Below, piece by piece: positions 7,901 through 31,850 of a stretch of DNA of 40,649 bases (position 1 is the first letter of the stretch; each line of letters begins with the position of its first letter). Both the position numbers and the translations under genes were made by a program. This DNA is from a virus. The notes below the pieces were generated by a model. It was given only the letters and a program-made list of their open reading frames with translations, did no database searches and was not told the origin of the DNA. Location: positions 1 through 40,649 of the IMG/VR virus record IMGVR_UViG_3300042453_002432. The stretch is one strand, 5' to 3'.

Positions 7901-10506
7901 GCTACGAAGTTCCAGCGTATGTAGCAGCGAACTTCTATTACAACCGGTGGCGACAAATCGTCATGGCAAGTCGCAACGCACAGAATGATCCCGGCTTCCA
8001 GCAGCTGATAGACCACGTCGACGAAACGCTCAAGTACCTGCGCGCGTTTCGGATCAGCGATACCGAACCCGGCATTTCGTTCAATGACACGATGAAGGTG
8101 GCCTTCGACGACAAGGGTTCGTTGTCAAAGGCGCGGGCGATTGATGAACTGACCCGTGAACGATTCAACGCTGGTGATGACTGGCGACAAGTCTTGTTCG
8201 GCCGGATTGCCGATTTCGCAGCCGATTCTCCGGACGTGTGGTCGGCGCAAATGGCGACTGCTTTGCTGGACACACAGAATGGAAGCTGGGCGCAGTCTTC
8301 TCAATCACATTTCAGTACGATGTTGCAGTATGCCGTCATGGAAATGACAGGGTTCACCGGAGACGACTTCCCTGAGTGGTCGGACTTCCAGAATCGTCGA
8401 CAGAAAGTCAACGGCTACGCTGGTGCATACACCGAAGGCGAGATGATGCTCGCGCGACTTATGGCGTTGTCGACCTACACCCTGACGCAAAGTCAGCTTC
8501 AGGAAATGAACATTGGCGAGGATGACGTTGTGTTCCTTGCGCGTGGTTCAAGCGAACCAGCATGGAATCGTGCGGCTGCCGCGGGAGAGACGGTCAAAGT
8601 GTCGTCAAATCCTTTGTCGGCAAACGCGACGCGAACGGGTGTCGCTAATAGCTTCGGTGGCAGCATCACGGTCGGCTATCGGGTGCCGCGTAGCCGCATC
8701 TTCAGTACCGCACACACGGGACCGGGAACGTACAAAGAGGCTGAGGCGCTAGTGATGGGCGATCCCGCCGGTTACATCGGTCAAGCTAAGTATTCGCCGA
8801 GCGCGCCAGACATGACGGCACTAAAGAAGACGTTGAGCAGTCAGGTCGCTGAAACAGAGGCGGCGGGTGCGTTGAACATCGCTGAGACTGTCGGCATGAC
8901 GGCCGGTGACATGAGTCTGCTGCGTCTGCTGCGGAACAAATACACGTCTTATCCGTCACGGCAGTTGGCAGGAGAACGGGATACAGACCCCATTCGGCTG
9001 CTTCCGGTGCGGACGTGGTCTGCGGATGGCGGGCGATCGGACCTGTCGGACTTTCTAGCCGAGGATGATGAGCGGGTTGAGCGTGGGTTGACTGATCTTG
9101 GGATTGACTTGACGCAAGTTGAGGACGTCCCGTGGTCGGCGATGGACATAACGCATGAAGCGCGTGCCCGATGGGTGGGTCAGAGTCTCGCAGCGTATGT
9201 GCTCAACGCCCCTCTGGAGGAACGACCGGAAGCAATGACGCGTGCGTTGGCGGAGCTAAATGGCACCGATTTCACTGCGCCGTTCTACGTCAAACAAGAT
9301 GTTGTTCCAGCGGACGCTGATTGGTCGGCGAGTCAGCCAACGGCACCGGTTCAAGCGTTCAATAGCGATTATCTGCTTCGCAACATGAGCAACGAACTGA
9401 GTCTCGCTGGCAATAGCCAGTCGGACGTGATCTCACTGGCGGTCGATCCGACTGAGGTTGTCGGGCCGATGTTTCAAGGTTCCGGAAATGTTCTGACGCG
9501 ACAAGTGTCAGACCGGTTTCCGGCTTTCACGTCAGACTACGCCCGGTTGCGGCGATGGGGAGTGGCCGGAGACGCGACCGTGAAACGGATCGTTACGAAC
9601 GTGCCTACGACACGACCTGAAGCGGTTGACTACATTCAGAGGAGGAGCACGGAGCTAGCCACTCAAGCGTTTGAGCAACGCCTCGGTGCGGCGACCGGAC
9701 GCCCTGCACGGGGACGTGATTTCTCGCTGATGAGTGACGCGTCAGATGGCACGATCTTCGGTCCGGTCGATGACCGGCTGTATGTCATGGAAGCACAAGA
9801 TGGGCGACCGAACCGTCTTACCACCGTTGACGTCACCGACCCTGAACTCGCTGAATCGCTTCGTCAGCTGCGACGCCGAGTTGCTGTACCGCCGCAAGTC
9901 AGTATGTACGGTCCCACGTCGGCGGCAACGTCAGATACCTCTGTGGCGACTCTCTCAGAGGATTTGGGTATCAACATTACTTTGCTTGACAGTGAGCGGA
10001 CTTATTCCGAGAATGCGGACGCACGCCCTGACCAAGTTTGGGGACAAGCGGTCGTCTACGCGTTGTTCGACAGCAGTCTTCTGCCGGGAATGCCTAAGTC
10101 GGGATTGGACAAGGGGTTGGCGGATGAACCACAACGTGTGAGTTTCGGTGAGGCCGTTGACGCAGACGGAGCAGTAGCAATGCCGTCGTTCGACGAGTGG
10201 CTTCGGCTCTTGGACGCCAGAACGAAGCGGCTGATTTCGGATCGCATCGCTTCCGACGAAAGTAAGGGGGTCACCGTTGATGACCGCATCAAGGAGGCCG
10301 CCGCGGAAAGGTCTGTGACTGACAACGATTCGTTCGTCGCGCGTCTCCGGATCATCTACGATCAGCGGATGGCGTCGATCGACAACGCAAACGAACGGCG
10401 GGCGTTGTTGCAGCAGCTTGTCGATCTAGCGGCCTCGCAAGGTAAGGTGCTGGACGTGGACACGTTGGAACGAATGGTCCAGTCAAAGGCGTCGGTCAAG
10501 TCGTGA
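4933..10506 (+). CDS. Giant 1857-residue polyvalent protein with ADP-ribosyltransferase-like domain
   Basis: Starts at GTG three bases after the previous stop. Residues 1-110 form a module (IWHDPGNGRFAPRGF, then DNMLSRAGIAKGDVIDVVY and a basic beta-rich stretch) shared with the protein at 10783. Around residues 1170-1290 there is an R-S-E type ADP-ribosyltransferase pattern: helix LMALSTYTLTQSQLQEM, then VVFLARG (Arg near 1204), SSNPLS (near 1223) and a KEAEALV motif (ExE near 1268). This order matches ART domains at the C-termini of phage MuF-type proteins. The remaining ~1600 residues are not recognised and probably hold several further domains. Length and neighbourhood suggest a virion-packaged effector injected with the genome that could modify host proteins. 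The target is unknown. The ART call rests on motif order only; a structural prediction would settle it. Confidence 0.7.
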   Translation: MPYDSLGIWHDPGNGRFAPRGFSTLKALAFKLIKGGRTRDRVKKSGKGRARVADNMLSRAGIAKGDVIDVVYKNDDYGKVQITSKSGKPRWYDVQWARFDDEYVPDDVVDQPDVTPEPEPVKPKRAGFASRGAHPIVAEKPSYETAAAASVDEVSAEDRQELRSLLDAHSKGDSAAFADDVVPRWNALMKKLNLDPAVFPIDSKQFDNVTTGLTPFVAEKRGRPSALHIVRDADGRGVAIVETMSDPPLQVELEALGFVADIGATVRVGSVVRQAWDEPLLNMYGLSSRLMPAEDSDAAFDIFKRSYNAQRLMTQLNPSGGIPVVSTDDVFMLPPTAVGSIGPGNAYSYDIQPALVRLDGSIYLVGTDRHSPRNAMFDLMTQRQGDAKLIALPDTPENWAKAQLLVSNDAGRSDKMSPKMLWAATTVNPDGTYTVDTGANRSVTFGLDDAYRRLFDQVTLFTAKQDPPNQSSPKPPISKIGSSYPWTHQGSAPDKLPWRPPLSSSRSWWTLVTGQQAETSIDTGVAGLTQTVLSPDFQYPPMDLNDALTTNQDTVRDTIRMSSGFKPQSVISRLDKTFGRVKQQIIFGNDEGITFAVPARPANVNLADLASLEKAMPVLDQQLLKDMTEAWDRLGGERLAIRTISTDAKVDGEWTSVPYDAYQMAPVRPDLPAESEVTSTLPGPMQVAYNEQLYQTADQWFGMFQRGVAKDAVSELSLFDVPTFAPFVNRGASQPIRRDGKITLSGQAPPLADNLDDWVSMYEVAYDPNQQKLYTYKADGDLSSRATMSKVTPDDVRLLARLLVNGTRPSETGKLERRSPLFVKDALALLKAGRVKVDDDFRLYVDTPKGRQTFDSVDDFRDWDSATQITEQADAELSALGGVTAESFSEDAFREVSRRALRIGVDNPKSKLKALKIERNGKWASQGEDLERAKRWLLKFPVGDVALASLMTDLAALPDDPMAKVVVKGAGAEKDIPRGDGVVVTPVADGYEVPAYVAANFYYNRWRQIVMASRNAQNDPGFQQLIDHVDETLKYLRAFRISDTEPGISFNDTMKVAFDDKGSLSKARAIDELTRERFNAGDDWRQVLFGRIADFAADSPDVWSAQMATALLDTQNGSWAQSSQSHFSTMLQYAVMEMTGFTGDDFPEWSDFQNRRQKVNGYAGAYTEGEMMLARLMALSTYTLTQSQLQEMNIGEDDVVFLARGSSEPAWNRAAAAGETVKVSSNPLSANATRTGVANSFGGSITVGYRVPRSRIFSTAHTGPGTYKEAEALVMGDPAGYIGQAKYSPSAPDMTALKKTLSSQVAETEAAGALNIAETVGMTAGDMSLLRLLRNKYTSYPSRQLAGERDTDPIRLLPVRTWSADGGRSDLSDFLAEDDERVERGLTDLGIDLTQVEDVPWSAMDITHEARARWVGQSLAAYVLNAPLEERPEAMTRALAELNGTDFTAPFYVKQDVVPADADWSASQPTAPVQAFNSDYLLRNMSNELSLAGNSQSDVISLAVDPTEVVGPMFQGSGNVLTRQVSDRFPAFTSDYARLRRWGVAGDATVKRIVTNVPTTRPEAVDYIQRRSTELATQAFEQRLGAATGRPARGRDFSLMSDASDGTIFGPVDDRLYVMEAQDGRPNRLTTVDVTDPELAESLRQLRRRVAVPPQVSMYGPTSAATSDTSVATLSEDLGINITLLDSERTYSENADARPDQVWGQAVVYALFDSSLLPGMPKSGLDKGLADEPQRVSFGEAVDADGAVAMPSFDEWLRLLDARTKRLISDRIASDESKGVTVDDRIKEAAAERSVTDNDSFVARLRIIYDQRMASIDNANERRALLQQLVDLAASQGKVLDVDTLERMVQSKASVKS

Positions 10507-17993: not shown

Positions 17994-19742
17994 ATGAGCG
18001 AGAACACTGGGCACGACGGCGAGAACATCGTCGACGAGGTTGAGGACGACGTCGTCGACTACGGCTTGATGACTGAGGCCGAGCTTCGCGAGCGGCACGC
18101 TGCGCTGAGCGACCTGATCGACGAACTGCGCGAGCAGCCTCGGTCGATTGAGGTTGTGCAGGTCATCAACGATCTGAGGGCCGAGCGCAATCTGATCGTG
18201 GAGACCGTTCGGGAGCTTCAGGTCGCTGACGAGGCGATCGAAGCCGATCTTGATTTCGACGCCGCTCCGGTGTCGACCGACGAGGCAGATGCCGCGTCGA
18301 CCACGACCGACGAGGTTGCTGAGGCTTCGGCCGCAACGACCGCTGAGGACGCCACCATTGAGACTCAGGAGGCTGAGGTGTCCGACGATTCCACCATCGC
18401 AGAGGCAGAGGGGGTGATCGCCGAGGCGCTCGTCGCTGGAGTCGGTGAGCGCCCTGTCGCTCCGACTGCTCCCAGCAAGCCCGTTGTCGCCTATCACGCT
18501 GGAGCCGGTCAGTCGGCTTTCTCGCAGGGTTCGGCTCTTGACCTTGCGGGTCTCGGTCGGGCGTTCGAGTCCATGAAGGGCATTCAGCCGGGTGCCGACG
18601 GTCGGGTGACGCAGGCTGTCGTTGCTGCGCTTCCCGCTTTCGAGGACACGCATGAGCTTGCCGTTCCTGTCCTGAGCGAGCGGAATACTGCCGCTCAGAA
18701 CGACAGCATCATCGGCGAGGCCGTTGAGGCTTGGCGAGCGAATCGGGCGGGTGAGCCGCTGGCTCACACTGCGGCGATCTGTGATCCGCTGGATATCATC
18801 CGCGAGATTCCCGAGGTCGGCGTTACCGACACGCCGTTCGCCAACCTGTTCCCGCAGCGTCCAATCGGCCGTCTCGGTTTCACCTACACTCCGGCTGCTG
18901 CGATCGCTGACACGAACGACGGCATCGCCGTGTGGACCGAGGACGATCAGTCTGCGGTTGATCCGGACGACTCGTCGACGTGGAAGCCCTGCGTTGACAT
19001 TGCGTGTTCGTCTCCGGTGGAGGTCAAGGCGAAGGAACTGACGACCTGCGCCACGGTCGACACGATGGTCGAAATGTCCAGCCCTGAGCGTGTGCGGGAG
19101 TTCCTGCACCTCATGGGTGTTCAGCGGGCACGTCGCCGGGAGCAGCACATTCTGGACCTGTTCGACGACACGGCTTCCGGCTACACCTTCGCTGGCACCT
19201 ACGGCACCCTGCCGTCGCTGATTCAGGCGGTTCACACCGTCCTGCCTCAGCTGCTGTATGCGGAGCGTGAGGATGCTGCGAGCTACGACCTTGTGCTTGA
19301 GCCGGGCTTCGTCAACAAGCTCATTTACGACGAGCACAACAAGGCGTACACCGATCCGTCGGATGCGCTGGCGACCCTTCGGTCGGCGACCGGCCTGAAC
19401 GTCACGGTCCTCCGGGACTTCGTTGGGGCCAGCCCCTTCCAGACGCCGCCGACTGCCGGTGGTGGTTCGGCGACGCTCGCTGAGGTTCCCGACACGAACC
19501 GGGTTCGGATCGTGCCTGCCGGATCGTACATCTACGCTGCTACTGGCGAGGAGTCGACGGGTTGGCAGACCGACCCGCAGCTTGCCCGTCAGAACAAGCG
19601 GCAGGTGTTCTCCGCCGAGTACGTCCTGCTGGCGAAGCACAGTGGTGCCAAGGCTGCGTTCATTGATATCACCTCTGCGGGTGATGGCAGTCGGGCTTGC
19701 TGCGCCGAGCCGTTCGGGACCGAAGGTTACAGCGGTTCCTGA
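17994..19742 (+). CDS. Major capsid protein with fused N-terminal scaffold-like region
   Basis: 582 residues, ATG preceded by AGGGAG with 9-base spacing. Residues 1-170 are very acidic (Glu, Asp, Ala, Thr) with a coiled coil (ELRERHAALSDLIDELREQ) and look like a scaffold or delta domain that is normally cleaved after assembly. From ~200 on, the sequence has HK97-type major capsid features of actinophages: DIIREIPEVGVTDTPFANLF, FTYTPAAAI, VDTMVEMSSPERVREFL, a helix RARRREQHILDLFDD, then LVLEPGFVNKLIYDE, ATLRSATGLNVTVL, and a C-terminal beta region. Codons are strongly C/G-ending and less mixed than the neighbours, as expected for an abundant product. A 125-base leader precedes it and a strong hairpin terminator follows. 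Confidence 0.9.
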   Translation: MSENTGHDGENIVDEVEDDVVDYGLMTEAELRERHAALSDLIDELREQPRSIEVVQVINDLRAERNLIVETVRELQVADEAIEADLDFDAAPVSTDEADAASTTTDEVAEASAATTAEDATIETQEAEVSDDSTIAEAEGVIAEALVAGVGERPVAPTAPSKPVVAYHAGAGQSAFSQGSALDLAGLGRAFESMKGIQPGADGRVTQAVVAALPAFEDTHELAVPVLSERNTAAQNDSIIGEAVEAWRANRAGEPLAHTAAICDPLDIIREIPEVGVTDTPFANLFPQRPIGRLGFTYTPAAAIADTNDGIAVWTEDDQSAVDPDDSSTWKPCVDIACSSPVEVKAKELTTCATVDTMVEMSSPERVREFLHLMGVQRARRREQHILDLFDDTASGYTFAGTYGTLPSLIQAVHTVLPQLLYAEREDAASYDLVLEPGFVNKLIYDEHNKAYTDPSDALATLRSATGLNVTVLRDFVGASPFQTPPTAGGGSATLAEVPDTNRVRIVPAGSYIYAATGEESTGWQTDPQLARQNKRQVFSAEYVLLAKHSGAKAAFIDITSAGDGSRACCAEPFGTEGYSGS

Positions 19743-19770
19743 TCTAACAGCTGATCTGTTGTGAGACGGT

Positions 19771-19790
19771 CCGCCCCCTTCGGGGGGCGG
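19771..19790 (+). terminator. Intrinsic terminator after the capsid gene
   Basis: An 8-bp perfect GC stem (CCGCCCCC/GGGGGCGG) closes a TTCG tetraloop, the most stable RNA tetraloop, followed by GCTGTTTCGCGTT with only a weak T-run. It lies 29 bases after the capsid stop and before a new promoter-like site, so it separates capsid from the glycan cassette. Confidence 0.8.
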
Positions 19791-19802
19791 GCTGTTTCGC
19801 GT

Positions 19803-19808
19803 TACGAT
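19803..19808 (+). promoter_or_regulatory. Candidate -10 (TACGAT) for the glycan cassette
   Basis: TACGAT lies just after the terminator and 7 bases before an ATG (19816) that opens a seven-residue frame ending on the start of the first glycosyltransferase gene. No good -35 is visible, as is common for actinobacterial promoters. Confidence 0.4.
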
Positions 19809-19815
19809 GCGGGTG

Positions 19816-19839
19816 ATGAGAGCGAAGGCGCTGCCGTGA
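19816..19839 (+). other. Possible leader peptide ORF (MRAKALP)
   Basis: ATG 19816 begins a frame of seven codons ending in TGA at 19837-19839, which overlaps the GTG start of the glycosyltransferase (GTGA). The ATG sits 7 bases after a TACGAT hexamer. It may feed ribosomes to a gene that has only a weak ribosome site. It could be chance; there is no conservation evidence. Confidence 0.3.
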
Positions 19840-20534
19840 AGGTTGTAGTGCTCTGCCCAAGACGGGCTGATAACGGATGGCGTGACGAGCTATGGGGCTT
19901 TGTGCGCGCGTGGTGGACGACGCACCATCCGGAATGGCCGATCGTGGAGGGTTTCCACACCGACGGTTTGTTCAACCGCTCAGCGGCGATCAATCAAGCG
20001 GCTAGCAATGCTGGCGACTGGGACGTAGCGATCATCATTGACGCCGATACGCTGTCTGATCCGACGGCTATTCGTCTTGGCGCAGATATGGCCGAGTGGT
20101 CGGGATGCATGGTTGTGTGCCATGACCGGCGCGTGATGCTGAGTAAGCACGGTACGAAACGCATTCTGCGCGGGTACCGGCATTCGTGGCATACGCGCAA
20201 TTTCGTTGAGCGCACATGGTTTGAGTCGTGTTCGTCAGCTGTGGCTGTGAGTCGCTCAGTGTTTCAGCGTGCCGGTGGGTTTGACGAGCGGTTCGTTGGG
20301 TGGGGTCGCGAAGATTCGGCGTTCCGGATTGCATGTGAGACAGTCACAGGTAAGCCGATGTTGCGTGTGTCGTCAGAGGCGTGGCACTTGTGGCATCCAG
20401 TAGCTGAGGGCACGCAGCACGGTCACCCTGATCGGGCGTTGAACGATCAGCGTTTCGAGCAGTATCAGAAAGCCGCCGGGGATGTTGCACGGGTGGACTC
20501 GTTGACGGGAGGCGCATGGCTATTCCACGGGTAA
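19836..20534 (+). CDS. Glycosyltransferase, GT-A fold (galactosyltransferase-like)
   Basis: 233 residues from GTG 19836; longer starts would cross the terminator. The N-terminus (VKVVVLCPRRADNGW) is a Rossmann-like nucleotide-sugar strand, IIIDADTLSD gives the DxD metal site (Asp69, Asp71), and GGFDERFVGWGREDSAF near residue 150 is the acceptor/catalytic motif of the galactosyltransferase C-terminal family, followed by EAWHLWHP. It would transfer a sugar from a nucleotide sugar in the host cytoplasm. It is paralogous to the last gene of the cassette at 22427 (shared PxWPI, DAD, GWGxED, HLWHP). Its 3' end overlaps the next gene by 19 bases. Probable role: decorating virion proteins. Confidence 0.8.
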   Translation: MKVVVLCPRRADNGWRDELWGFVRAWWTTHHPEWPIVEGFHTDGLFNRSAAINQAASNAGDWDVAIIIDADTLSDPTAIRLGADMAEWSGCMVVCHDRRVMLSKHGTKRILRGYRHSWHTRNFVERTWFESCSSAVAVSRSVFQRAGGFDERFVGWGREDSAFRIACETVTGKPMLRVSSEAWHLWHPVAEGTQHGHPDRALNDQRFEQYQKAAGDVARVDSLTGGAWLFHG

Positions 20535-21151
20535 TTCATCGCACTGTGCCAGCTGTCGTTGACGGAACGGTTGAGCGTCTGTGGCGATCGGTGACGCGCT
20601 TGCATCCGAATTGGGATTGCTTGACGTGGAGAGAGCCGCTGGACCCGACGGCGTTTCCGTTGACAAGCGACTTGTGGGATCGGTGCGAGAGCGGCGCGCA
20701 GAAAGCCGACATTGTTCGCCTTGAACTACTCGTCACTCATGGCGGCATCTACGTTGATGCGGACGTGGAAGGGTTGCGGCCGTTTACGTCGCTCCTAAGC
20801 TGCGGCGCGTTTGCCGGATACGAGGATGAGCGAATCATCCCGAATGCGGTGATGGGGGCAGAAGCGGGACACCCGGCGTTTGTGCGAATGTTGGAGATGG
20901 CAAGTGAACGACTCGCTGCCGGTGTGTCGACGTGGCACATTGGACCCGGAACGACGACGCCTGTTCTGCAAGAGCGTGATGACGTCCTACTGCTGCCACC
21001 CGGCAGCTTGTATCCGTACCACTATCTAGAGCGCCGTCGGCGTCGCGAGAACTTTCGTGAAACCCAGCCGTGGGCGTTCTGCGTGCATCACTGGCATGGG
21101 TCGTGGTTGAGCGACGATCAGCGTCGCAGTCTGGAGCAACGGCAGCGATGA
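20516..21151 (+). CDS. Glycosyltransferase with DXD motif (GT32/OCH1-like)
   Basis: 211 residues, ATG with GGGAGG close upstream. The start MAIPRVIHRTVP is typical of the sugar-transferase DXD family (IPKxIHxxW), and KADIVRLELLVTHGGIYVDA followed by DVEGL places the DxD at residues 81-83. The C-terminal HHWHGSW is also a family hallmark. Family members transfer mannose, glucose or GlcNAc. The substrate here is not predictable. It is embedded in a five-gene coupled cassette with two further transferases and two methyltransferases. Its stop overlaps the next start (ATGA). Confidence 0.8.
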   Translation: MAIPRVIHRTVPAVVDGTVERLWRSVTRLHPNWDCLTWREPLDPTAFPLTSDLWDRCESGAQKADIVRLELLVTHGGIYVDADVEGLRPFTSLLSCGAFAGYEDERIIPNAVMGAEAGHPAFVRMLEMASERLAAGVSTWHIGPGTTTPVLQERDDVLLLPPGSLYPYHYLERRRRRENFRETQPWAFCVHHWHGSWLSDDQRRSLEQRQR

Positions 21152-21816
21152 CAGACGCTTTGTTCAATGCGTTGATGGAATTGAGTCCAATCCCACCCGG
21201 AACGACAGATGGCGTTGACGGTTGGCTGACCTCCAACGAGGAGGCCGCTTTGCTGGCGTTGGGCCGGTACGCAAGCGGTCCGGTGCTTGAGGTTGGACCG
21301 TGGCTCGGCCGATCTACGGCATGTATCGCCGCAGGTATTAGCCAACGCGAACAAGTCGTGGCGTTCACGACCGTGGAACTAAACCCGACCGTTGAGCAGT
21401 GGACTGAGATTGATGGCCTGTGGCATTTCATTCCGGACCCGAACATGCCGTCTTTAGGCGGGTCATCACGGGATGAGTGGCTTGCCATCGAAGCGGTTGT
21501 GTCACACCCGCTCGGCGTTGTCGGGCAGTTGCGCCAGAATCTAGACCGGTTGGGTGTCGCTGCGCTGGTTGATGTTGTCATCGGCGACTTTCGGCAGGTG
21601 CCGCTAACCCCTCCGTATCAGACCGTGTTTAGCGACACTCTGCATAACCCGGATGAAATTGACCGGTATGCGCTCAAGTTTCGGGCGTTGCTGGAAGACG
21701 GCGGCGTGTTCGCGTGCCATGACATGACGCCGCAGAATCGCGAATCACTAGGGCGTGTGATGACTTTCGATCAAGAAACGCAGATCGACGGCTTGTTCGT
21801 AGGGCGTGTGTCGTGA
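21148..21816 (+). CDS. SAM-dependent methyltransferase, class I
   Basis: 222 residues from ATG 21148 (ATGA overlap). VLEVGPWLGRST at residues 46-57 is motif I for SAM binding. Further on, VVIGDFRQVPLT, VFSDTLHNPDEI and ALLEDGGVFACHDMT correspond to motifs with acidic residues and the post-motif strand of the Methyltransf_24-like group, which often act on sugars or small molecules. The setting between glycosyltransferases points to O-methylation of a sugar, as on methylated glycans of actinobacterial surfaces. Coupled by GTGA overlap to the next gene. Confidence 0.75.
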   Translation: MTDALFNALMELSPIPPGTTDGVDGWLTSNEEAALLALGRYASGPVLEVGPWLGRSTACIAAGISQREQVVAFTTVELNPTVEQWTEIDGLWHFIPDPNMPSLGGSSRDEWLAIEAVVSHPLGVVGQLRQNLDRLGVAALVDVVIGDFRQVPLTPPYQTVFSDTLHNPDEIDRYALKFRALLEDGGVFACHDMTPQNRESLGRVMTFDQETQIDGLFVGRVS

Positions 21817-22430
21817 ACGCTGGTGAGGTCTTCGGCAAGATTTATCAGACTGATTTCTGGAACGGCGGCTCGGGAGTCGGATCAGCGGCAGAAACGACGG
21901 TCGTGTATCGGGCCTTTCTAGATCGCTTTCTGACGAGAGCGAACATCACGTCAGTAGTCGACGTTGGTTGCGGTGATTGGCAGCTAGGTCGACTCGTTGA
22001 CTGGAGCGGCGTGAACTACGTCGGCATTGACGTGGTCGATTCCGTCATTGAAGCCAATGCGGATGCCTATGGTTCTGACGCCGTCCGGTTCGCTGAATTT
22101 GATGTGCTTGATGATCTAGACGCATTGCCGGTCGCCGATGCATTGCTAATCAAAGACGTGTTGCAGCACTGGCCGATTGCTGATTGCAAGCGGTTCTTGT
22201 CATGGGCGACTAGTCGGTATGACTATGTCGTCGCAACGAACGACGTCTCTCATGTCCGGTCGTCTCGTCGCATGACCAACACAGATGTTCCTCTGGGCGG
22301 TTGGCGATGCCTAGACGTTGAAGCGAAGCCTTTCGGTTATCGGGCCGTCTACACCGAGGACTATCCAGTGCTGGAGACGTGGGTCAAGCGCATCGCCGTT
22401 CTACACAACTTCAAGTGGCTCGCTCCTTGA
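21813..22430 (+). CDS. SAM-dependent methyltransferase, class I, second copy type
   Basis: 205 residues, GTG start overlapping the preceding stop. VVDVGCGDWQLGRL (Asp50, Gly52, Gly54) is a strong SAM-binding motif I; GVNYVGIDVVDSVIEAN is motif II, and ALLIKDVLQHWP is motif IV-like. This arrangement is common in sugar O-methyltransferases and in phage proteins of unknown substrate. It does not look like a close copy of the preceding methyltransferase, so the two probably methylate different positions. The stop overlaps a TTG start of the next gene. Confidence 0.75.
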   Translation: MNAGEVFGKIYQTDFWNGGSGVGSAAETTVVYRAFLDRFLTRANITSVVDVGCGDWQLGRLVDWSGVNYVGIDVVDSVIEANADAYGSDAVRFAEFDVLDDLDALPVADALLIKDVLQHWPIADCKRFLSWATSRYDYVVATNDVSHVRSSRRMTNTDVPLGGWRCLDVEAKPFGYRAVYTEDYPVLETWVKRIAVLHNFKWLAP

Positions 22431-23113
22431 AGACGGCGGTCGTGGTGCCGTGGCGGAATGCACCCGACCGGCTCCCATTGTGGTCGTTCGTCAAACGGCG
22501 CCTAGAGGAGCAGTATCCCCAGTGGCCGGTGATTGAAACGGATTGCTCTCCCGGGCCGTTCAGTCGCGCCGAGTGCATCGTTAGGGGCGCACAAGCAGCG
22601 GACGCCGACGTCGTAGTTGTGACCGATGCTGACGTTATCCTGCACGGTGATCTAAGCGATTCCGTTGCGGCGGTCATGGCCGGACCCGCTGCGTGGGCTG
22701 TCCCCCATTGGCATTTACGCAGGCTCACCGCAGAGGCTAGCCACGCCGTCATGGCAGGTGCGCCGTTGAGCGAACGGTTGCCGCTAGCCGAGAAAGCCTA
22801 CAAGGGCAACGCTACAGGGACGCTAGTGGTGCTTAGGACTGACCTATTGTTTGCCGTACCGCCCGACGTGAGGTTCCGAGGCTGGGGGCAAGAGGATGAG
22901 GCGTGGGCAGCTGCACTGCGATTGCTGGCCGGTGAGCCGTGGCGTGGAGCGGCTGACCTGTTCCACTTGTGGCATCCTCCGGCAGAACGGATGAGTCGTG
23001 TGGAGGGCAACCCGGAAGGGGTGCGGCTTCGGCATCGTTATGATCGTGTGGCTCGTAGCCGCCCGATGATGCAAGCCTTGGTTGACGAGTCCAAATCAGC
23101 GTGGGTTTGGTAG
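22427..23113 (+). CDS. Glycosyltransferase, paralogue of the first cassette gene
   Basis: 228 residues if translation starts at TTG 22427, which overlaps the previous stop as TTGA and gives MKTAVVVPWRN, the correct N-terminal strand for the fold; the upstream GTG lies deep in the previous gene. VVVTDADVILHGD gives the DxD (67-69), RFRGWGQEDEAWAAALR is the GWGxED motif, then LFHLWHPPAERM. Clear similarity to the gene at 19836 in motif order and spacing shows duplication, with the pair bracketing the cassette. The last 18 bases overlap the 3' end of the convergent zinc-finger gene. Cytoplasmic, nucleotide-sugar dependent. Confidence 0.8.
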   Translation: MKTAVVVPWRNAPDRLPLWSFVKRRLEEQYPQWPVIETDCSPGPFSRAECIVRGAQAADADVVVVTDADVILHGDLSDSVAAVMAGPAAWAVPHWHLRRLTAEASHAVMAGAPLSERLPLAEKAYKGNATGTLVVLRTDLLFAVPPDVRFRGWGQEDEAWAAALRLLAGEPWRGAADLFHLWHPPAERMSRVEGNPEGVRLRHRYDRVARSRPMMQALVDESKSAWVW

Positions 23114-23518
23114 GTCGTGTCGCCGGTTTCTGGCCCATGCTTTGATGGAGGTGAGTTGTCGTTCACGCCAGACCATGATGATTTCGTCTACGGGGACGTT
23201 GGCGTCGGTGGTAACGACGTGCCCAGCAAGATGAACAAGCATGGCGTCCCCGAATCGGATGCCGCATCCGGCGCTGAAGACTGCCTTGGTTGGGCGACCA
23301 CATCCGGCAAGGCATTGACCCGGAGACGGGTTGAAGCCGATGCATGTAGGCGGCTTAGTGAGCGAATCGACGTACACCTGTAGGAGTGAGGGTGGAACGA
23401 CGCCGGTTGCAAGGTGGCCGAGCAGGACGCCCTGCACGCGCCGGTTGTGTCCGGGAGCGAAGGTCCGGTCGGTCTCGGTTCCGCATCCGCAGACGCAGAT
23501 GCCATACCGGTGAGCCAT
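23096..23518 (-). CDS. CGCG zinc-finger protein, opposite strand
   Basis: 140 residues from ATG at 23518 (reading left); an in-frame ATG at 23527 is the alternative. ICVCGCGTETDRTFAPGHNR is an actinobacterial CxCGCG...F.PGHd zinc-binding motif, and QCLAGCGRPTKAVFSAGC looks like a second degenerate copy. That motif pair argues for a real gene against the codon strand of its neighbours. Convergent with the glycosyltransferase (18-base overlap). A TAGCAT hexamer lies 7 bases before ATG 23518, fitting a leaderless transcript and favouring that start. Role unknown; a DNA- or RNA-binding or regulatory protein is plausible. Confidence 0.65.
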   Translation of the reverse strand: MAHRYGICVCGCGTETDRTFAPGHNRRVQGVLLGHLATGVVPPSLLQVYVDSLTKPPTCIGFNPSPGQCLAGCGRPTKAVFSAGCGIRFGDAMLVHLAGHVVTTDANVPVDEIIMVWRERQLTSIKAWARNRRHDLPNPR

Positions 23519-23525
23519 GCCGCTC

Positions 23526-23531
23526 ATGCTA
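23526..23531 (-). promoter_or_regulatory. Candidate -10 (TAGCAT) for the zinc-finger gene
   Basis: Read on the - strand, TAGCAT precedes ATG 23518 by 7 bases. It is one of two - strand genes in the window, and both show the same hexamer spacing as the + strand genes. Confidence 0.4.
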
Positions 23532-23569
23532 ATGCAACCCGAGTGTCCGGTTAGACTGCTATCATCATC

Positions 23570-23575
23570 TTGCTG
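23570..23575 (+). promoter_or_regulatory. Candidate -10 (TATCAT) for the replication-like operon
   Basis: TATCAT lies in the divergent gap; a start about 7 bases downstream leaves a short leader carrying GAGGAG before GTG 23596. The -35 (TGTCCG near 23544) is weak and badly spaced. Confidence 0.4.
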
Positions 23576-23595
23576 TCGAACTGAGGAGCAATTGC

Positions 23596-24129
23596 GTGTC
23601 TGATCTAATCCCCGCTCACGACGAAGTTGACGTCCAGCTGCCACCCGGTCTGCAAGCCATCCGAGCCGCCATCGGGGCATCGCTGGACGACGTCAAGGCA
23701 CTAGACGAGTCAGGTGACCTGACCGGCTTGCTGGTCGGCATTGCAGCGATCGACACGATTCGTCGTGACCTTGGCGACCTGCGGTCAGTCGCTGGCGCCG
23801 CCGCCGCAGGACACATGGAGAGCAAGCAAGTGGCGATCGACAACGTCGGCTTGTTCGAGCGCAAGTCTGACGTCAAGCGCACGACCGACTGGGATGCCAT
23901 CATCGGCGAAATCCGCCGTCGGGCACTAGTAGATTCGGATACCGGCGAGGTGGTCGACGATCCAGCACTAGCTGTGGAACGATGCTTGGCGCTGATTCGG
24001 GATATCGTGCCGCTCTACCGTTCGACCTCGGCTAAGCAGGGCGGTCTAAGCGGAGCCGGAATCGACAAGGAACAGGTACAAGACTCTGAGTGGAAGGCGC
24101 CCAATGTCGTGTTCAAGGGAAACCGATGA
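23596..24129 (+). CDS. Conserved actinophage protein near replication genes
   Basis: 177 residues, GTG start with GAGGAG 7 bases upstream. The N-terminal half is helical (LDDVKALDESGDL, DTIRRDLGDLRSV). Then comes VGLFERKSDVKRTTDWDAI and LVDSDTGEVVDDP, which match a pattern (GxFERxxxxxRTxWD ... LVDxxTGE) that I know from short actinophage/prophage proteins encoded beside replication and recombination genes. Function is unknown. The stop overlaps the next start (ATGA), making a three-gene coupled unit with the two following genes. Confidence 0.65.
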   Translation: MSDLIPAHDEVDVQLPPGLQAIRAAIGASLDDVKALDESGDLTGLLVGIAAIDTIRRDLGDLRSVAGAAAAGHMESKQVAIDNVGLFERKSDVKRTTDWDAIIGEIRRRALVDSDTGEVVDDPALAVERCLALIRDIVPLYRSTSAKQGGLSGAGIDKEQVQDSEWKAPNVVFKGNR

Positions 24130-25388: not shown

Positions 25389-25596
25389 GCGACCGCTGCA
25401 TTGTTGCGAGGTGCACGGCGACCATAGTGACACGGCCGCTTGTGGTTACTTCATCTGTGATACGGCGTATGGCGAACGCGTCTTCTTGTGGGCGTGTGGC
25501 CCTTGTCGACAATGGTGGCTGAACCGTCATCCAGAAAGCGCGTGGGTTGGCTGGGGAGTCGATACGTCGACCTCACCCGCAATCGGCACGCCCTAG
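25339..25596 (+). CDS. Small Cys/Trp-rich protein
   Basis: About 85 residues from ATG 25339; GTG 25357 is an equally good start, and both overlap the zinc-ribbon gene. HCCEVHGDHSDTAACGYFIC and WACGPCRQWW give several Cys/His pairs, so metal binding is likely. Its tail is ordinary coding sequence up to the promoter region of the head protein gene. No family recognised. Small size, uncertain start and overlap keep confidence modest. Confidence 0.45.
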   Translation: MTTHRTVSILARRRTAKRPLHCCEVHGDHSDTAACGYFICDTAYGERVFLWACGPCRQWWLNRHPESAWVGWGVDTSTSPAIGTP

Positions 25597-25599
25597 CCC

Positions 25600-25605
25600 T
25601 ACACT
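25600..25605 (+). promoter_or_regulatory. Candidate -10 (TACACT) for the head protein gene
   Basis: TACACT is followed by about 25 bases of leader that contain CGGAGG 8 bases before GTG 25637. The hexamer-to-start layout resembles those at 26854 and 33878. Confidence 0.45.
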
Positions 25606-25636
25606 ATGGATCGACCGATCCCCGGAGGTTCACGCT

Positions 25637-26500
25637 GTGTTTCTGCCAGCACCGGCCCCGTCCATTCAGCCGGACCCTACTGAAATCAATCTCCTCACCT
25701 CCGCCGATCCGCTCCCTGCGGGAGTGGCGAGCTACGACCGGTGGCGCACCGGGCTTGCTCAGCGGCACACCTACACGGTGGCTACTGGAACGTGGCCCGT
25801 CGACTGCGTTAGCGAAGATGAGAAAGACGCGATCGGAGAAACCGCAAACGCCGTTTCTGAGTTCTTCCCGGTTAGCCTGTATTCGCATCACGGGTGCGCT
25901 GGACGTGTGGACGTTGAAGCGTATCGGGCTGAGGCGATTGCCCGTGTTGAGCAGGCAACTCCGTACCTGCTGGCACAAGAGCTTTGGACTGGAACGGTCA
26001 GCGGAAACCCGTCGCTTCAGTCGACTGGGTTCGACCTGACACCGTTCGTGGGTTCTGACTTGACCCCCGCAGAGGGCGTTGCTGCCTTGCTCGGTGCCTT
26101 CGAGACAGTAACGGCTGGGGCTAAGACGTTTGTGCATGTCCCGCAGCCGATCGTGTTCGACCTGATCGACAAGGTGCTAGTGACCCGACAAGGCAATCGG
26201 CTTGTGACGGCGAACGGACACGTCATCATTCCGGGACCGGGTTATCCGGTGGCTCCGGGTAGTCACGGTCCGGCAGGTTCCGATCCAGCTGATGCAGGGG
26301 AGTTCTGGATTTACGCCACGGGTTGCGTAGAGGTCGGAGTGCATACGACCTTCACGACCGGAGCCGAGGACAACGCCGTCGGCGGATACGCTCGCCAGAA
26401 CCTTGTCGAATACTATGCCGAGCGCCTTGCAATCTACCGCTTCCCGCCGACAGTTATGGCGATCAAGGTTCGTGCTAGCTGGTACGCTGCGGGTTCGTGA
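25637..26500 (+). CDS. Actinophage virion structural protein (head, post-capsid family)
   Basis: 287 residues; GTG 25637 has an excellent CGGAGG, and the frame upstream overlaps another gene. Features of a family usually placed after the major capsid gene in actinophages are visible: VDVEAYRAEAIARVEQATPY helix, LAQELWTGTV, an alanine-rich helix (GVAALLGAFETVT), a FVHVPQPIVFDLIDKV segment, NGHVIIPGPGYP, and the C-terminal EFWIYATGCVEVGV strand. It is probably a head or decoration component. Here about 6 kb of accessory genes separate it from the capsid gene. Its stop overlaps the next start (GTGA). Confidence 0.7.
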   Translation: MFLPAPAPSIQPDPTEINLLTSADPLPAGVASYDRWRTGLAQRHTYTVATGTWPVDCVSEDEKDAIGETANAVSEFFPVSLYSHHGCAGRVDVEAYRAEAIARVEQATPYLLAQELWTGTVSGNPSLQSTGFDLTPFVGSDLTPAEGVAALLGAFETVTAGAKTFVHVPQPIVFDLIDKVLVTRQGNRLVTANGHVIIPGPGYPVAPGSHGPAGSDPADAGEFWIYATGCVEVGVHTTFTTGAEDNAVGGYARQNLVEYYAERLAIYRFPPTVMAIKVRASWYAAGS

Positions 26501-26891: not shown

Positions 26892-27089
26892 GTGGATTCT
26901 GCAACCTTCCTGACCGTCGTCAGCTATCTACCTGTCATCGCGTTGATGCTGGTATTGGTTCGTACAACGTCGCTACGCAAGCGGAAATACGCCGGACCTG
27001 TCGATCTTGACAGAGTTGATTTCTGGGCGTTGGTCTCGGCAGTCGCTCTCATGTTGGCTGTCGTGGTAGTGGTGGTCCAGTCCGCATGA
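26892..27089 (+). CDS. Small two-helix membrane protein
   Basis: 65 residues from GTG 26892; a longer form from 26829 or 26832 is possible but would carry a promoter-like TACAGT within it. FLTVVSYLPVIALMLVLV and ALVSAVALMLAVVVVVV are two clear transmembrane segments flanking a short basic loop (SLRKRKYAG). Two-helix proteins of this kind in phages are candidate holins or membrane accessory factors. Coupled to the WhiB gene by ATGA overlap. No family recognised. Confidence 0.55.
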   Translation: MDSATFLTVVSYLPVIALMLVLVRTTSLRKRKYAGPVDLDRVDFWALVSAVALMLAVVVVVVQSA

Positions 27090-27511
27090 TTGACGTCACC
27101 TCAATGGACTACTCGGCGGCGCTTTGTCGTGGACGCGACCCGGAACCTTTCTTTGAGCAGAGTCGAACGCCGGAGATGTTGGCGTTGTGCGACACCTGTC
27201 CGGTGCAACCGGCTTGCATCCGTGAGCACGTCAATGAGCGAATGGGCGTGTGGGGGTGCTCTGAACGTGCCCGACGGCGACTTCGACCACTATTGCGGGC
27301 GCGCCCTGACATGCCCGATGTGGAGCTTATGCAGATTGCCCGTCGTGATTCGCAGGGGCGACCAGTAGCGCGCGTGATTGCGATGACGGCGATGGCCGAA
27401 TCTGACGCTGAGCGGGCGGTGCGTCTGCTCAGGAGTGAGGGGTTCGACGACCGACAGATCGCTGACATGCTTGGCGGATCGCCCTTGCGGATGCGCGAAG
27501 GTCGCGCCTGA
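27086..27511 (+). CDS. whiB: WhiB-family Fe-S transcription factor
   Basis: 141 residues. Cysteines at 14, 35, 38 and 44 (C-x20-C-x2-C-x5-C within ALCRGRDPEPFF and LCDTCPVQPACIREHV) give the four ligands of the [4Fe-4S] cluster, and GVWGCSERARRRLR is the G[VI]WG turn with its basic tail that contacts the sigma factor and DNA. WhiB proteins are restricted to Actinobacteria and their phages, which fixes the host phylum. The C-terminal ~45 residues (AERAVRLLRSEGFDDRQIAD, MLGGS) look like an added helix-turn-helix, not usual in short phage WhiB proteins. It may redirect host transcription or block superinfection, as reported for a mycobacteriophage WhiB. Confidence 0.9.
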   Translation: MIDVTSMDYSAALCRGRDPEPFFEQSRTPEMLALCDTCPVQPACIREHVNERMGVWGCSERARRRLRPLLRARPDMPDVELMQIARRDSQGRPVARVIAMTAMAESDAERAVRLLRSEGFDDRQIADMLGGSPLRMREGRA

Positions 27512-28148: not shown

Positions 28149-28799
28149 TTACGGCTTGCTCAGGGCGAGAACTTTCTCGGTAGAGACTCTGCGTTCGCCG
28201 TTCTGGCCGTAGCGCATTCTCATCGTTCGGACCGGTCGGGCTTCCTCCAAGCGAAACCCGAGGTCGATCAGCGTTGATAGATGCCACTCCACCACGGGTT
28301 GCTCTATGCCTTTGCGAATGTGATTGGAGACGTTGACGATCAACATGCCACCCGGCTTGAGCACGGTATGGCACTCGGCCCAGACGGTCTCATGCAGGTT
28401 TCGGTATTCAGTCCCCCACTGGAGTCCCGCCCCGTTCCACGGCGACAAGGCGCGACCGAGGGCGATCCTGTAGGTGAAACGTCTGCTGCCGTTCGCGTCA
28501 CCCGCGTAGTTGTCGGCCATGCGGTTGCCGTAGGCAGGCGACGTGACGATGGCGTCGACGGACTCAGGGTCAAACATGCAGCTGAGGTCGGTTGAGTCGC
28601 CACAGATCGTGTCTGGGTGGGCTGCCGCCCATTCCGGCTCTAGTTCTACCCCGACGGTCCGGTAGTCGCTCAGAGCGTGAATCCCGCCTACTCCGGCGAA
28701 CGGGTCTAGGACTGTGCTGCCCGGATTGACGTAGACCACAAGCAGAGCGGCGATTGTATCCAGAATGGGCGTGCTGAATTGTGCTGGGTGGCGTGCCAT
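28149..28799 (-). CDS. DNA methyltransferase (N4/N6-type)
   Basis: 216 residues on the - strand, stop adjacent to the lipoprotein stop. STVLDPFAGVGGI (residues 29-40) is SAM-binding motif I, GVELEPEW is motif II, and DAIVTSPAYGNRMADNY (TSPAY at 86-90) is a variant of the catalytic (D/S)PPY motif IV. The order I then IV, with a short middle, suggests a compact enzyme without a large target-recognition domain. It may methylate adenine or cytosine in phage DNA to avoid host restriction, or be an orphan enzyme. No restriction partner is seen; the HNH nucleases lie about 0.7 kb away on the other strand. TACAAT lies 7 bases before its ATG. Confidence 0.8.
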   Translation of the reverse strand: MARHPAQFSTPILDTIAALLVVYVNPGSTVLDPFAGVGGIHALSDYRTVGVELEPEWAAAHPDTICGDSTDLSCMFDPESVDAIVTSPAYGNRMADNYAGDANGSRRFTYRIALGRALSPWNGAGLQWGTEYRNLHETVWAECHTVLKPGGMLIVNVSNHIRKGIEQPVVEWHLSTLIDLGFRLEEARPVRTMRMRYGQNGERRVSTEKVLALSKP

Positions 28800-31157: not shown

Positions 31158-31850
31158 ATGGCTTGTATCAATGTTCGTGAGGGCGAAGGCGTCGTCATCA
31201 TCTACGATCTTGACGAGTGTGGTGCGCCTGACACGGGCGCTGGCAAGAAGCTGATCCTGTCGACCATCTCCGAAATCAGCTTCGAGGATCAGATTGAGGA
31301 AGGCGATCAGGTTACTGAGCGCAACTTCGGCGGTCGTAAGTGCTACACCGATGTTGGTCAGGACGAAATCAGCCGCGTGAACGTCAACCTGACTAGCTGC
31401 GGTATCAGCCCGGCGCTGGATTCGTTCCTCATGGGATCGAACCTTTACGGGGACTCCCGTGGCTACGGCCGTGTCGACCTGTCGGATGGCACCACGAACG
31501 TCGCCGTTGAGGTGCTGATTCGGCTGGACGCTTCGGCTTGTGAGGGTGCTGGTTCGGCTCCGGTTGCCGGTTGGTTCTTCCCGCTGGTCAAGAACTGGGC
31601 GCCGACGGGTGGCGCGACGCTGAACGGCAGCGACCTTGTGAAGCCCGCCTACGCTGGCAAGGGCTTCAAGAATCAGAACATCTTCGACGGCTCTCCGTAC
31701 GACCTTCAGCGATGGGAGGTCACCGCAGGCTTTGATCCGGGCACGACGCCTACCAACGGCGAGTGGTACGGCTTCTACCTGTTTGACGGCTTCACTCTGC
31801 CGTCTGCTGACGCCGATTGCGAGCCGGTGGCTTTCGCTGCCACGTCCTGA
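31158..31850 (+). CDS. Probable major tail (tube) protein
   Basis: 230 residues, ATG with CGGGAG upstream, C-ending codons that point to high expression, and a terminator directly after. The protein is beta-rich: STISEISFEDQIEEGDQVTE, NVNLTSCGISPALDSFLMG, VAVEVLIRLDASACEG, then GWFFPLVKNWAPTGG, KPAYAGKGFKNQNIFD and WYGFYLF. This pattern (N-terminal strand set, 'pal..lltG' turn, 'wPl.kn..pt' strand) is that of actinophage major tail proteins. The many Cys are unusual. Alternative: another neck or tail-tip structural protein. Confidence 0.65.
   Translation: MACINVREGEGVVIIYDLDECGAPDTGAGKKLILSTISEISFEDQIEEGDQVTERNFGGRKCYTDVGQDEISRVNVNLTSCGISPALDSFLMGSNLYGDSRGYGRVDLSDGTTNVAVEVLIRLDASACEGAGSAPVAGWFFPLVKNWAPTGGATLNGSDLVKPAYAGKGFKNQNIFDGSPYDLQRWEVTAGFDPGTTPTNGEWYGFYLFDGFTLPSADADCEPVAFAATS

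What the first reader, a model, noticed from the sequence alone, without database searches (positions are those of the whole stretch)
19836..23113. Five-gene sugar transfer and methylation cassette after the capsid gene
Two paralogous GT-A enzymes bracket a GT32-like enzyme and two methyltransferases, all with stop-start overlaps, right after the capsid terminator. Virion glycosylation has been reported in mycobacteriophages; here methyltransferases are added, suggesting a methylated glycan on capsid or tail proteins, possibly mimicking host surface sugars or hiding the virion.
Basis: partly seen in the sequence, partly recalled or inferred. Interest (0 to 1): 0.6.

Follow-up and report, generated by a model that had tools for sequence, protein, structure and literature searches.

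The report
Phage capsid sugar-coating gene cassette
This virus of an actinobacterium carries five genes that most likely build a methylated sugar and attach it to the tail ends of its own shell proteins; such sugar-coating is already known from a few mycobacterial viruses, but comparison with relatives points to a simple new rule for where the sugar goes: proteins that end in glycine-serine.

Summary
Five overlapping genes at 19836-23113 follow the major capsid gene: two distant GT-A paralogues (phrog_1721) flank a GT32 enzyme and two SAM methyltransferases. "Methyltransferases are added" is not new: Che8 and the Corndog group, whose virions are reported glycosylated, carry a TylF-type O-methyltransferase beside a homologue of GT1. 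M. abscessus prophage prophiGD91-2 has nearly the same gene set. About 25 uncultured-virus loci fuse the GT-A and GT32 domains in one frame, mostly in head operons.
Going further, a candidate acceptor emerged. Virion proteins of cassette phages often end in Gly-Ser: here the capsid protein (..GYSGS) and a second head protein (..YAAGS); in Che8 capsid and tail tube (..KTGS, ..SDGS). Within one capsid-protein family, 16 of 17 phages with a nearby glycosyltransferase end in GS against 3 of 27 without (P = 4e-8; 11 of 12 without the seed loci, P = 2e-6). Independent tree pairs agree 6 to 0.3 (p = 0.03). The tail-tube family repeats it (13/18 against 2/17). I read this as a C-terminal O-glycosylation signal. 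A new member of a known kind, with a testable acceptor rule. The glycan itself was not seen.

The parts
17994..19742 (+). Major capsid (hexamer-type) protein, 582 aa, C-terminus ..GTEGYSGS: predicted glycan acceptor
   Evidence: phrog_777 major head protein E 1.4e-16; homologous to annotated 'major capsid hexamer protein' of Xkcd426, TurkishDelight, Atuin, Mimi; GS tail absent from relatives without a cassette
19759..19801 (+). Very stable GC-rich hairpin between capsid gene and cassette; possible weak intrinsic terminator
   Evidence: fold of 19745-19815: -45.6 kcal/mol, z -6.3; U-tract too poor for the terminator scan
19836..20534 (+). GT1: GT-A fold glycosyltransferase, phrog_1721 ('galactosyl transferase')
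   Evidence: AF2 model pLDDT 95.6, closest solved folds b4GalT1/7, chondroitin polymerase, ppGalNAcT; homologue of Che8 gp109 and Firecracker gp35
20516..21151 (+). GT32-family glycosyltransferase (Gly_transf_sug) with intact DxD
   Evidence: PF04488 E 1.4e-08; 50% identical to Phrappuccino gp142, 47% to prophiGD91-2 gp73; fused to the GT-A domain in about 25 IMG/VR loci
21148..21816 (+). MT1: class I SAM methyltransferase, Methyltransf_24, predicted sugar O-methyltransferase
   Evidence: PF13578 E 8e-10; Pfam domain shared with the TylF-type enzymes of Che8 and Firecracker; no close relative found
21813..22430 (+). MT2: class I SAM methyltransferase, phrog_3382
   Evidence: homologue of prophiGD91-2 gp76 (E 1.7e-14) and of enzymes beside GT-A/GT32 genes in about ten further loci
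22427..23113 (+). GT2: second GT-A glycosyltransferase, phrog_1721
   Evidence: 28% identical to GT1; 42% over 107 aa to Streptomyces phage glycosyltransferases
25547..26500 (+). Second head protein (possible capsid pentamer), 317 aa, C-terminus ..SWYAAGS: predicted glycan acceptor
   Evidence: phrog_779; profile match E 1.9e-21 to the gene directly after the capsid hexamer gene in five phages; relative in cassette locus L116 ends ..GTGGGS
31158..31850 (+). Major tail protein, C-terminus ..FAATS: possible acceptor (Ser end, not GS)
   Evidence: phrog_792; homologous to tail proteins of DSL-LC01, Mimi, TurkishDelight

Best explanation
The cassette is a virion glycosylation module. One GT-A enzyme (GT1 or GT2), fold-related to b4-galactosyl- and polypeptide GalNAc-transferases, probably attaches the first sugar from a nucleotide sugar to the C-terminal serine of the capsid protein (..GYSGS) and of a second head protein (..YAAGS), perhaps also the tail tube (..AATS). 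GT32 and the other GT-A enzyme extend the chain, and MT1 and MT2 methylate sugar hydroxyls. Co-translation from overlapping genes just behind the capsid gene would match enzyme supply to capsid supply. Shown here: gene identity, motifs, GT1 fold, homology to cassettes of phages reported as glycosylated, and the association of GS termini with glycosyltransferase genes. Inferred: the order of steps, sugar identities, methylation of the glycan, and serine as attachment point. Benefit to the phage is unknown; shielding of the particle surface is the likeliest.
For: GT1 homologous to Che8 gp109 (E 1e-12) and Firecracker gp35; Che8, Corndog and Myrna virions reported as glycosylated, with glycans at the C-termini of capsid and tail tube. 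Both known cassettes pair a GT-A enzyme with a TylF-type methyltransferase. Similar sets in prophiGD91-2, Wanda and Phrappuccino and many IMG/VR loci. Che8 capsid ends NKTGS and tail tube YSDGS, Firecracker capsid PLVGS, tail tube KGDS, and hardly any other head/tail gene in those stretches ends in Ser. One MCP family: GT present 16/17 GS ends, absent 3/27, P 3.6e-8; without seed loci 11/12, P 2e-6; independent pairs 6 against 0.3, p 0.03. Tail-tube family: 13/18 against 2/17, P 4e-4. GS ends in cassette loci 57/831, 12-fold over internal GS; no-GT loci 5/391, all in two loci. GS-ended proteins are major head proteins of three PHROG families, major tail proteins and phrog_779.
Against: No mass spectrometry and no culture. 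L154 and L174 have GS ends without a detected glycosyltransferase (both contigs start just upstream of the head genes). Cluster J Wanda has a post-capsid cassette but its capsid ends ..TAPSF. Some lineage relatives with a cassette do not end their capsid protein in Ser (L013 ..DESA). The GS idea was formed after seeing cassette loci. MT1 has no close relative, and its single-sequence model was poor.
Confidence: 0.75

Rival explanations
1. The enzymes modify host surface glycans during infection or lysogeny (receptor masking, superinfection exclusion, serotype conversion), not the virion.
For: Phage glycosyltransferases of this sort exist (mentioned in PMC12619734). In prophiGD91-2 and Phrappuccino the cassette is not directly behind the capsid gene.
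Against: No membrane anchor, flippase or undecaprenyl-linked enzyme family among the five genes. Placement inside the head operon here and in Wanda, L003 and the Corndog group. [quoted passage not shown]
Confidence: 0.12
2. The cassette glycosylates phage DNA through hypermodified bases, as T4-type glucosyltransferases do.
For: Phage glycosyltransferases are known to act on DNA; a DNA N6/N4-methylase domain lies on the opposite strand at 28149-28799.
Against: No hydroxymethyl-pyrimidine synthesis gene seen in the scanned genes. Homologues in Che8 and the Corndog group belong to virion glycosylation cassettes. The GS association concerns proteins.
Confidence: 0.05
3. The GS terminus is an assembly or stability signal that merely co-occurs with glycosylation cassettes, while glycans sit elsewhere on the virion.
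For: Two GS loci without a detected glycosyltransferase (L154, L174). Wanda has a cassette without GS ends.
Against: GS appears on unrelated folds (three major head protein families, tail tube, phrog_779) and is gained or lost with glycosyltransferases several times on one tree. Reported glycans sit at capsid and tail-tube C-termini, and Che8, where glycosylation is reported, has GS at both.
Confidence: 0.15
4. The cassette is mobile metabolic cargo with no set function in this phage.
For: Gene order and composition are fluid between phages; MT1 seems restricted to this genome.
Against: Intact motifs, four tight overlaps, recurrent placement in head operons, and covariation with acceptor-like tails.
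Confidence: 0.05

Closest known systems
Virion glycosylation cassettes of mycobacteriophage Che8 (gp108-110) and the Corndog group (Firecracker gp33-36)
   Same: GT-A enzyme homologous to GT1/GT2; a methyltransferase with the same Methyltransf_24 domain; several glycosyltransferases in a row; capsid (and in Che8 tail-tube) proteins ending in Gly-Ser
   Different: They use a GT25-type enzyme (Che8 gp110, Corndog gp38, called essential) that the window lacks; the window has GT32, a second GT-A enzyme and a second methyltransferase; position in the genome differs
prophiGD91-2 (Mycobacterium abscessus prophage) genes 73-80
   Same: GT32 (47% identical), two GT-A enzymes, two methyltransferases and a further annotated glycosyltransferase, upstream of the terminase; capsid ends ..LESSGS
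   Different: Different order, second methyltransferase of another family, extra glycosyltransferase (gp80)
Cluster J mycobacteriophage Wanda genes 15-20
   Same: Cassette directly after the major capsid gene with a methyltransferase and a GT-A enzyme (27-28% identical to GT1)
   Different: Includes a kinase-like gene, no GT32, and capsid end without GS
IMG/VR loci with GT-A-GT32 fusion (L003, L013-L038, L047 and others)
   Same: The two adjacent enzymes of the window in one reading frame, in head operons; in L020, L032 and L034 followed by an MT2 homologue
   Different: Fused rather than overlapping; many lack methyltransferases or add a Glyphos_transf-like enzyme

Membership tests
Actinophage virion glycosylation cassette (Che8/Corndog type) | Phage-encoded glycosyltransferases homologous to the known ones | tested here: met
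   GT1 and GT2 match Che8 gp109, Firecracker gp35 and Wanda gp20
Actinophage virion glycosylation cassette (Che8/Corndog type) | Essential GT25-type enzyme (Che8 gp110 / Corndog gp38) | tested here: not met
   No GT25 homologue in the window by profile search; GT32 is present instead, and the contig may be incomplete. For this reason I claim the broader class (virion glycosylation cassette), not the GT25 subtype
Actinophage virion glycosylation cassette (Che8/Corndog type) | O-methyltransferase in the cassette | tested here: met
   MT1 has the Methyltransf_24 domain also found in Che8 gp108 and Firecracker gp33
Actinophage virion glycosylation cassette (Che8/Corndog type) | Capsid C-terminus like that of phages reported as glycosylated | tested here: met
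   Window capsid ..YSGS against Che8 ..KTGS and Firecracker ..LVGS
Actinophage virion glycosylation cassette (Che8/Corndog type) | Covalent O-glycan on virion proteins | not testable with these tools
   Needs mass spectrometry of particles
GT32 (PF04488) | Gly_transf_sug domain above the curated cut-off, with DxD | tested here: met
   35.8 bits against a cut-off of 23; DxD invariant
GT-A, phrog_1721 | GT-A fold with DxD and WGxED-type motif | tested here: met
DNA-glucosylating phage enzymes | Accompanying hydroxymethyl-pyrimidine synthesis genes | tested here: inconclusive
   None seen in the scanned window genes, but the contig may be partial

The most novel reading that the evidence does not exclude
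A C-terminal Gly-Ser is a general, transferable glycosylation signal in tailed phages: cassettes built around phrog_1721 GT-A enzymes, with GT32, GT25 or other partners and methyltransferases, recognise the free C-terminal GS of otherwise unrelated head and tail proteins, and capsid families gain or lose this tail together with the enzymes. I could not read Freeman et al. 2023 to see whether they already note the motif.
Probability: 0.55. Interest if true: 0.7.

Novelty: new member of a known kind. Interest (0 to 1): 0.5.

Why it matters
Glycosylated phage particles were reported only recently and in few isolates. A sequence rule for the acceptor would let one predict from genomes which phages, and which of their proteins, are sugar-coated, and would make the acceptor question testable with a single residue change. 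It also suggests a short C-terminal tag for enzymatic protein glycosylation. The window adds a cassette outside mycobacteriophages, in a phage whose capsid resembles those with a separate hexamer protein, and points to a common GT-A/GT32 fusion enzyme for which I found no description in the papers searched.

Tried and rejected
Nucleotide search of the region against phage records: no match. Capsid and MT1 relatives in viral contigs, and MT1 relatives in genome contigs, by peptide patterns: none. MT1 structure from a single sequence: pLDDT 42, not used. PDB sequence searches gave only weak matches. The alignment of 14 GT-A sequences was too divergent for a collection scan. Freeman et al. 2023 is not held, nor are Corndog, Myrna, TM4 and Bxb1 records under the accessions tried, so Firecracker stood in for Corndog and Giles served as an isolate without a listed glycosyltransferase in the stretch read (capsid ends ..IVTP). 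One script counted genes with unmirrored minus-strand coordinates; its counts were replaced. Host-surface and DNA modification were considered and ranked lower. A GT25 search found nothing, including in its controls, so it does not exclude that family in L154 and L174.
Full report
WHAT IS THERE. The window is a 40,649-base IMG/VR virus record, 60.6% G+C, with a WhiB-like gene at 27086-27511, which points to an actinobacterial host. It has no near-identical relative among 50,697 phage records. The five genes are present as described: GT1 19836-20534, GT32 20516-21151, MT1 21148-21816, MT2 21813-22430, GT2 22427-23113, with overlaps of 19, 4, 4 and 4 nt. Family searches confirm two phrog_1721 GT-A enzymes, a GT32 enzyme, a Methyltransf_24 enzyme and a phrog_3382 methyltransferase. 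GT1 and GT2 are old paralogues at about 28% identity. Catalytic motifs are intact. GT1 gives a confident model (pLDDT 95.6) whose best solved matches are b4-galactosyltransferases 1 and 7, chondroitin polymerase and polypeptide GalNAc-transferases, all UDP-sugar enzymes. The upstream gene is the major capsid protein. Between them lies a very stable hairpin with a weak U-tract.

WHERE ELSE IT OCCURS. prophiGD91-2 of Mycobacterium abscessus has GT32, two GT-A enzymes, two methyltransferases and another glycosyltransferase upstream of its terminase. Phrappuccino has GT32, two GT-A enzymes and a methyltransferase with no head genes in the stretch read. Cluster J phage Wanda has, directly behind its capsid gene, a cassette of glycosyltransferases with a methyltransferase and a kinase-like gene. 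Firecracker, of the Corndog group, has a TylF-type O-methyltransferase and three further enzymes between portal and protease. Che8 has a GT2-TylF fusion, a GT-A enzyme and a GT25 enzyme. GT1 is homologous to the GT-A members of Wanda, Firecracker and Che8. In IMG/VR, about 25 loci, some of them near-duplicates, have the GT-A and GT32 domains in one reading frame, typically in the head operon, and L020, L032 and L034 add an MT2 homologue right behind. Such fusions argue that the window's first two enzymes work together.

WHAT IS KNOWN. Che8, Corndog and Myrna virions are reported glycosylated (PMC12363180), with glycans at the C-termini of capsid and tail-tube subunits (PMC12619734; both citing Freeman et al. 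2023, which is not held). For Corndog, complex methyl and glycan modification of the capsid was proposed in 2015 from the neighbouring O-methyltransferase and glycosyltransferase genes (PMC4351075).

A CANDIDATE ACCEPTOR. Reading the neighbours of the cassette, I noticed that many ORFs end in Gly-Ser. Che8's capsid ends ..NKTGS and its tail tube ..YSDGS; Firecracker's capsid ends ..PLVGS and its tail tube ..KGDS. Of the other head/tail genes read in those stretches only the small Firecracker gp40 ends in Ser. In the window the capsid ends ..GYSGS and a 317-aa protein at 25547-26500 ends ..YAAGS. This second protein is orthologous to the gene directly after the capsid hexamer gene in Atuin, Mimi, DSL-LC01, Xkcd426 and TurkishDelight (profile E 1.9e-21), so it is a head protein, possibly the pentamer; that name is inference. 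Those relatives do not end in GS on either protein (Atuin and Mimi ..VVAG and ..YA; Xkcd426 ..IPAP and ..ACC). TurkishDelight, which has glycosyltransferases close by, ends its capsid ..GSTS and its tail tube ..CVAS. Cassette locus L116, of the same capsid lineage, ends both head proteins in GS.

TESTS OF THE RULE. (a) One major head protein family (phrog_1328), collected by its conserved core: after removal of near-copies, 16 of 17 with a glycosyltransferase within 10 kb end in GS, against 3 of 27 without one and with at least 4 kb on each side (Fisher 3.6e-8). Five seed loci had been picked partly for their GS ends; without them it is 11 of 12 against 3 of 27 (2e-6). Whole-record searches then found a GT2 gene in L183 (GS end) and in L140 (..PAS end) outside my flanks or beyond my own profiles, and no GT-A, GT32 above cut-off, GT2, GT4 or Glyphos hit in the other 23 records; the GT-A profile rang in 11 of 11 known positives. 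The table becomes 17 of 19 against 2 of 23 (1e-7). (b) On a tree built without the C-terminal tail, eight independent pairs differ in glycosyltransferase presence; GS goes the same way in 6, the other way in 0.3 on average (p 0.03, near the limit for so few pairs). (c) The tail-tube family repeats it: GS in 13 of 18 with a glycosyltransferase against 2 of 17 without; ending in Ser, 17 of 18 against 3 of 17. The two exceptions are again L154 and L174, so the property is shared within a genome. (d) Over whole loci, 57 of 831 ORFs in cassette loci end in GS, twelve times the internal rate of GS; in no-GT loci 5 of 391, all in L154 and L174. (e) GS-ended proteins belong to three major head protein PHROGs, the major tail protein and phrog_779.

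MECHANISM. Best reading: a GT-A enzyme primes the free C-terminal serine of capsid (and other virion) subunits, GT32 and the second GT-A enzyme extend, and MT1 and MT2 cap the glycan by O-methylation. The attachment atom, the order, the sugars and the methylation are inferred. In Che8 and Corndog a GT25 enzyme is reported as essential. The window lacks it, so the priming enzyme may differ between subtypes.

CAVEATS. The rule was found in the data and then tested on partly overlapping data, although excluding seed loci and using a second protein family left it standing. L154 and L174 remain unexplained; both contigs begin just upstream of the head genes. Wanda does not follow the rule, and not every cassette phage in the window's own lineage has GS on its capsid protein (L013 ..DESA, though its phrog_779 protein ends ..TGGS and its tail protein ..VGSS). 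MT1 has no close relative in any collection searched. In the window alone, two GS ends among 41 called plus-strand ORFs is only mildly unusual (p 0.03); the weight comes from which proteins they are and from the comparison.

VERDICT. A real, intact virion glycosylation and methylation cassette, a new member of a known kind with a GT32-containing composition. The comparison yields a simple acceptor hypothesis, a C-terminal Gly-Ser, that is cheap to test.

Noticed in passing
window 23096-23680, minus strand: A 194-aa frame with paired-cysteine motifs (CVCGCGTETDRTFAPGHNRR) runs convergently into the end of GT2 and overlaps its last 18 nt; no Pfam or PHROG match.
   Followed up: partly
window 28149-28799, minus strand: DNA N6/N4-methylase domain (PF01555) encoded against the direction of the surrounding genes.
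   Followed up: no
L005 2404-5005: Cassette GT-A, MT2-like methyltransferase, GT-A, then a frame that looks like a TagD-type nucleotidyltransferase and another glycosyltransferase; with Glyphos_transf-like enzymes beside cassettes in L003, L006 and L030 this hints at glycerol-phosphate decoration of phage glycans.
   Followed up: partly
L013, L015, L018, L019 (about 8200-10480): Three glycosyltransferase domains (GT-A, GT-A, GT32) fused in one frame of about 730-750 aa, in loci whose capsid and phrog_779 or tail proteins resemble those of the window.
   Followed up: partly
L154 and L174: Capsid and tail-tube proteins both end in Gly-Ser but no glycosyltransferase was found in the record; both contigs start just upstream of the head genes. 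Predicted to carry one on missing sequence.
   Followed up: partly
L009 3467-3976 (Wanda gp16): A small kinase-like gene sits inside the post-capsid glycosyltransferase/methyltransferase cassette of cluster J phages.
   Followed up: no
window 19759-19801: A hairpin with a long near-perfect stem follows the capsid stop codon (z -6.3) without a good U-tract; it may trim capsid transcripts or limit read-through into the cassette.
   Followed up: partly
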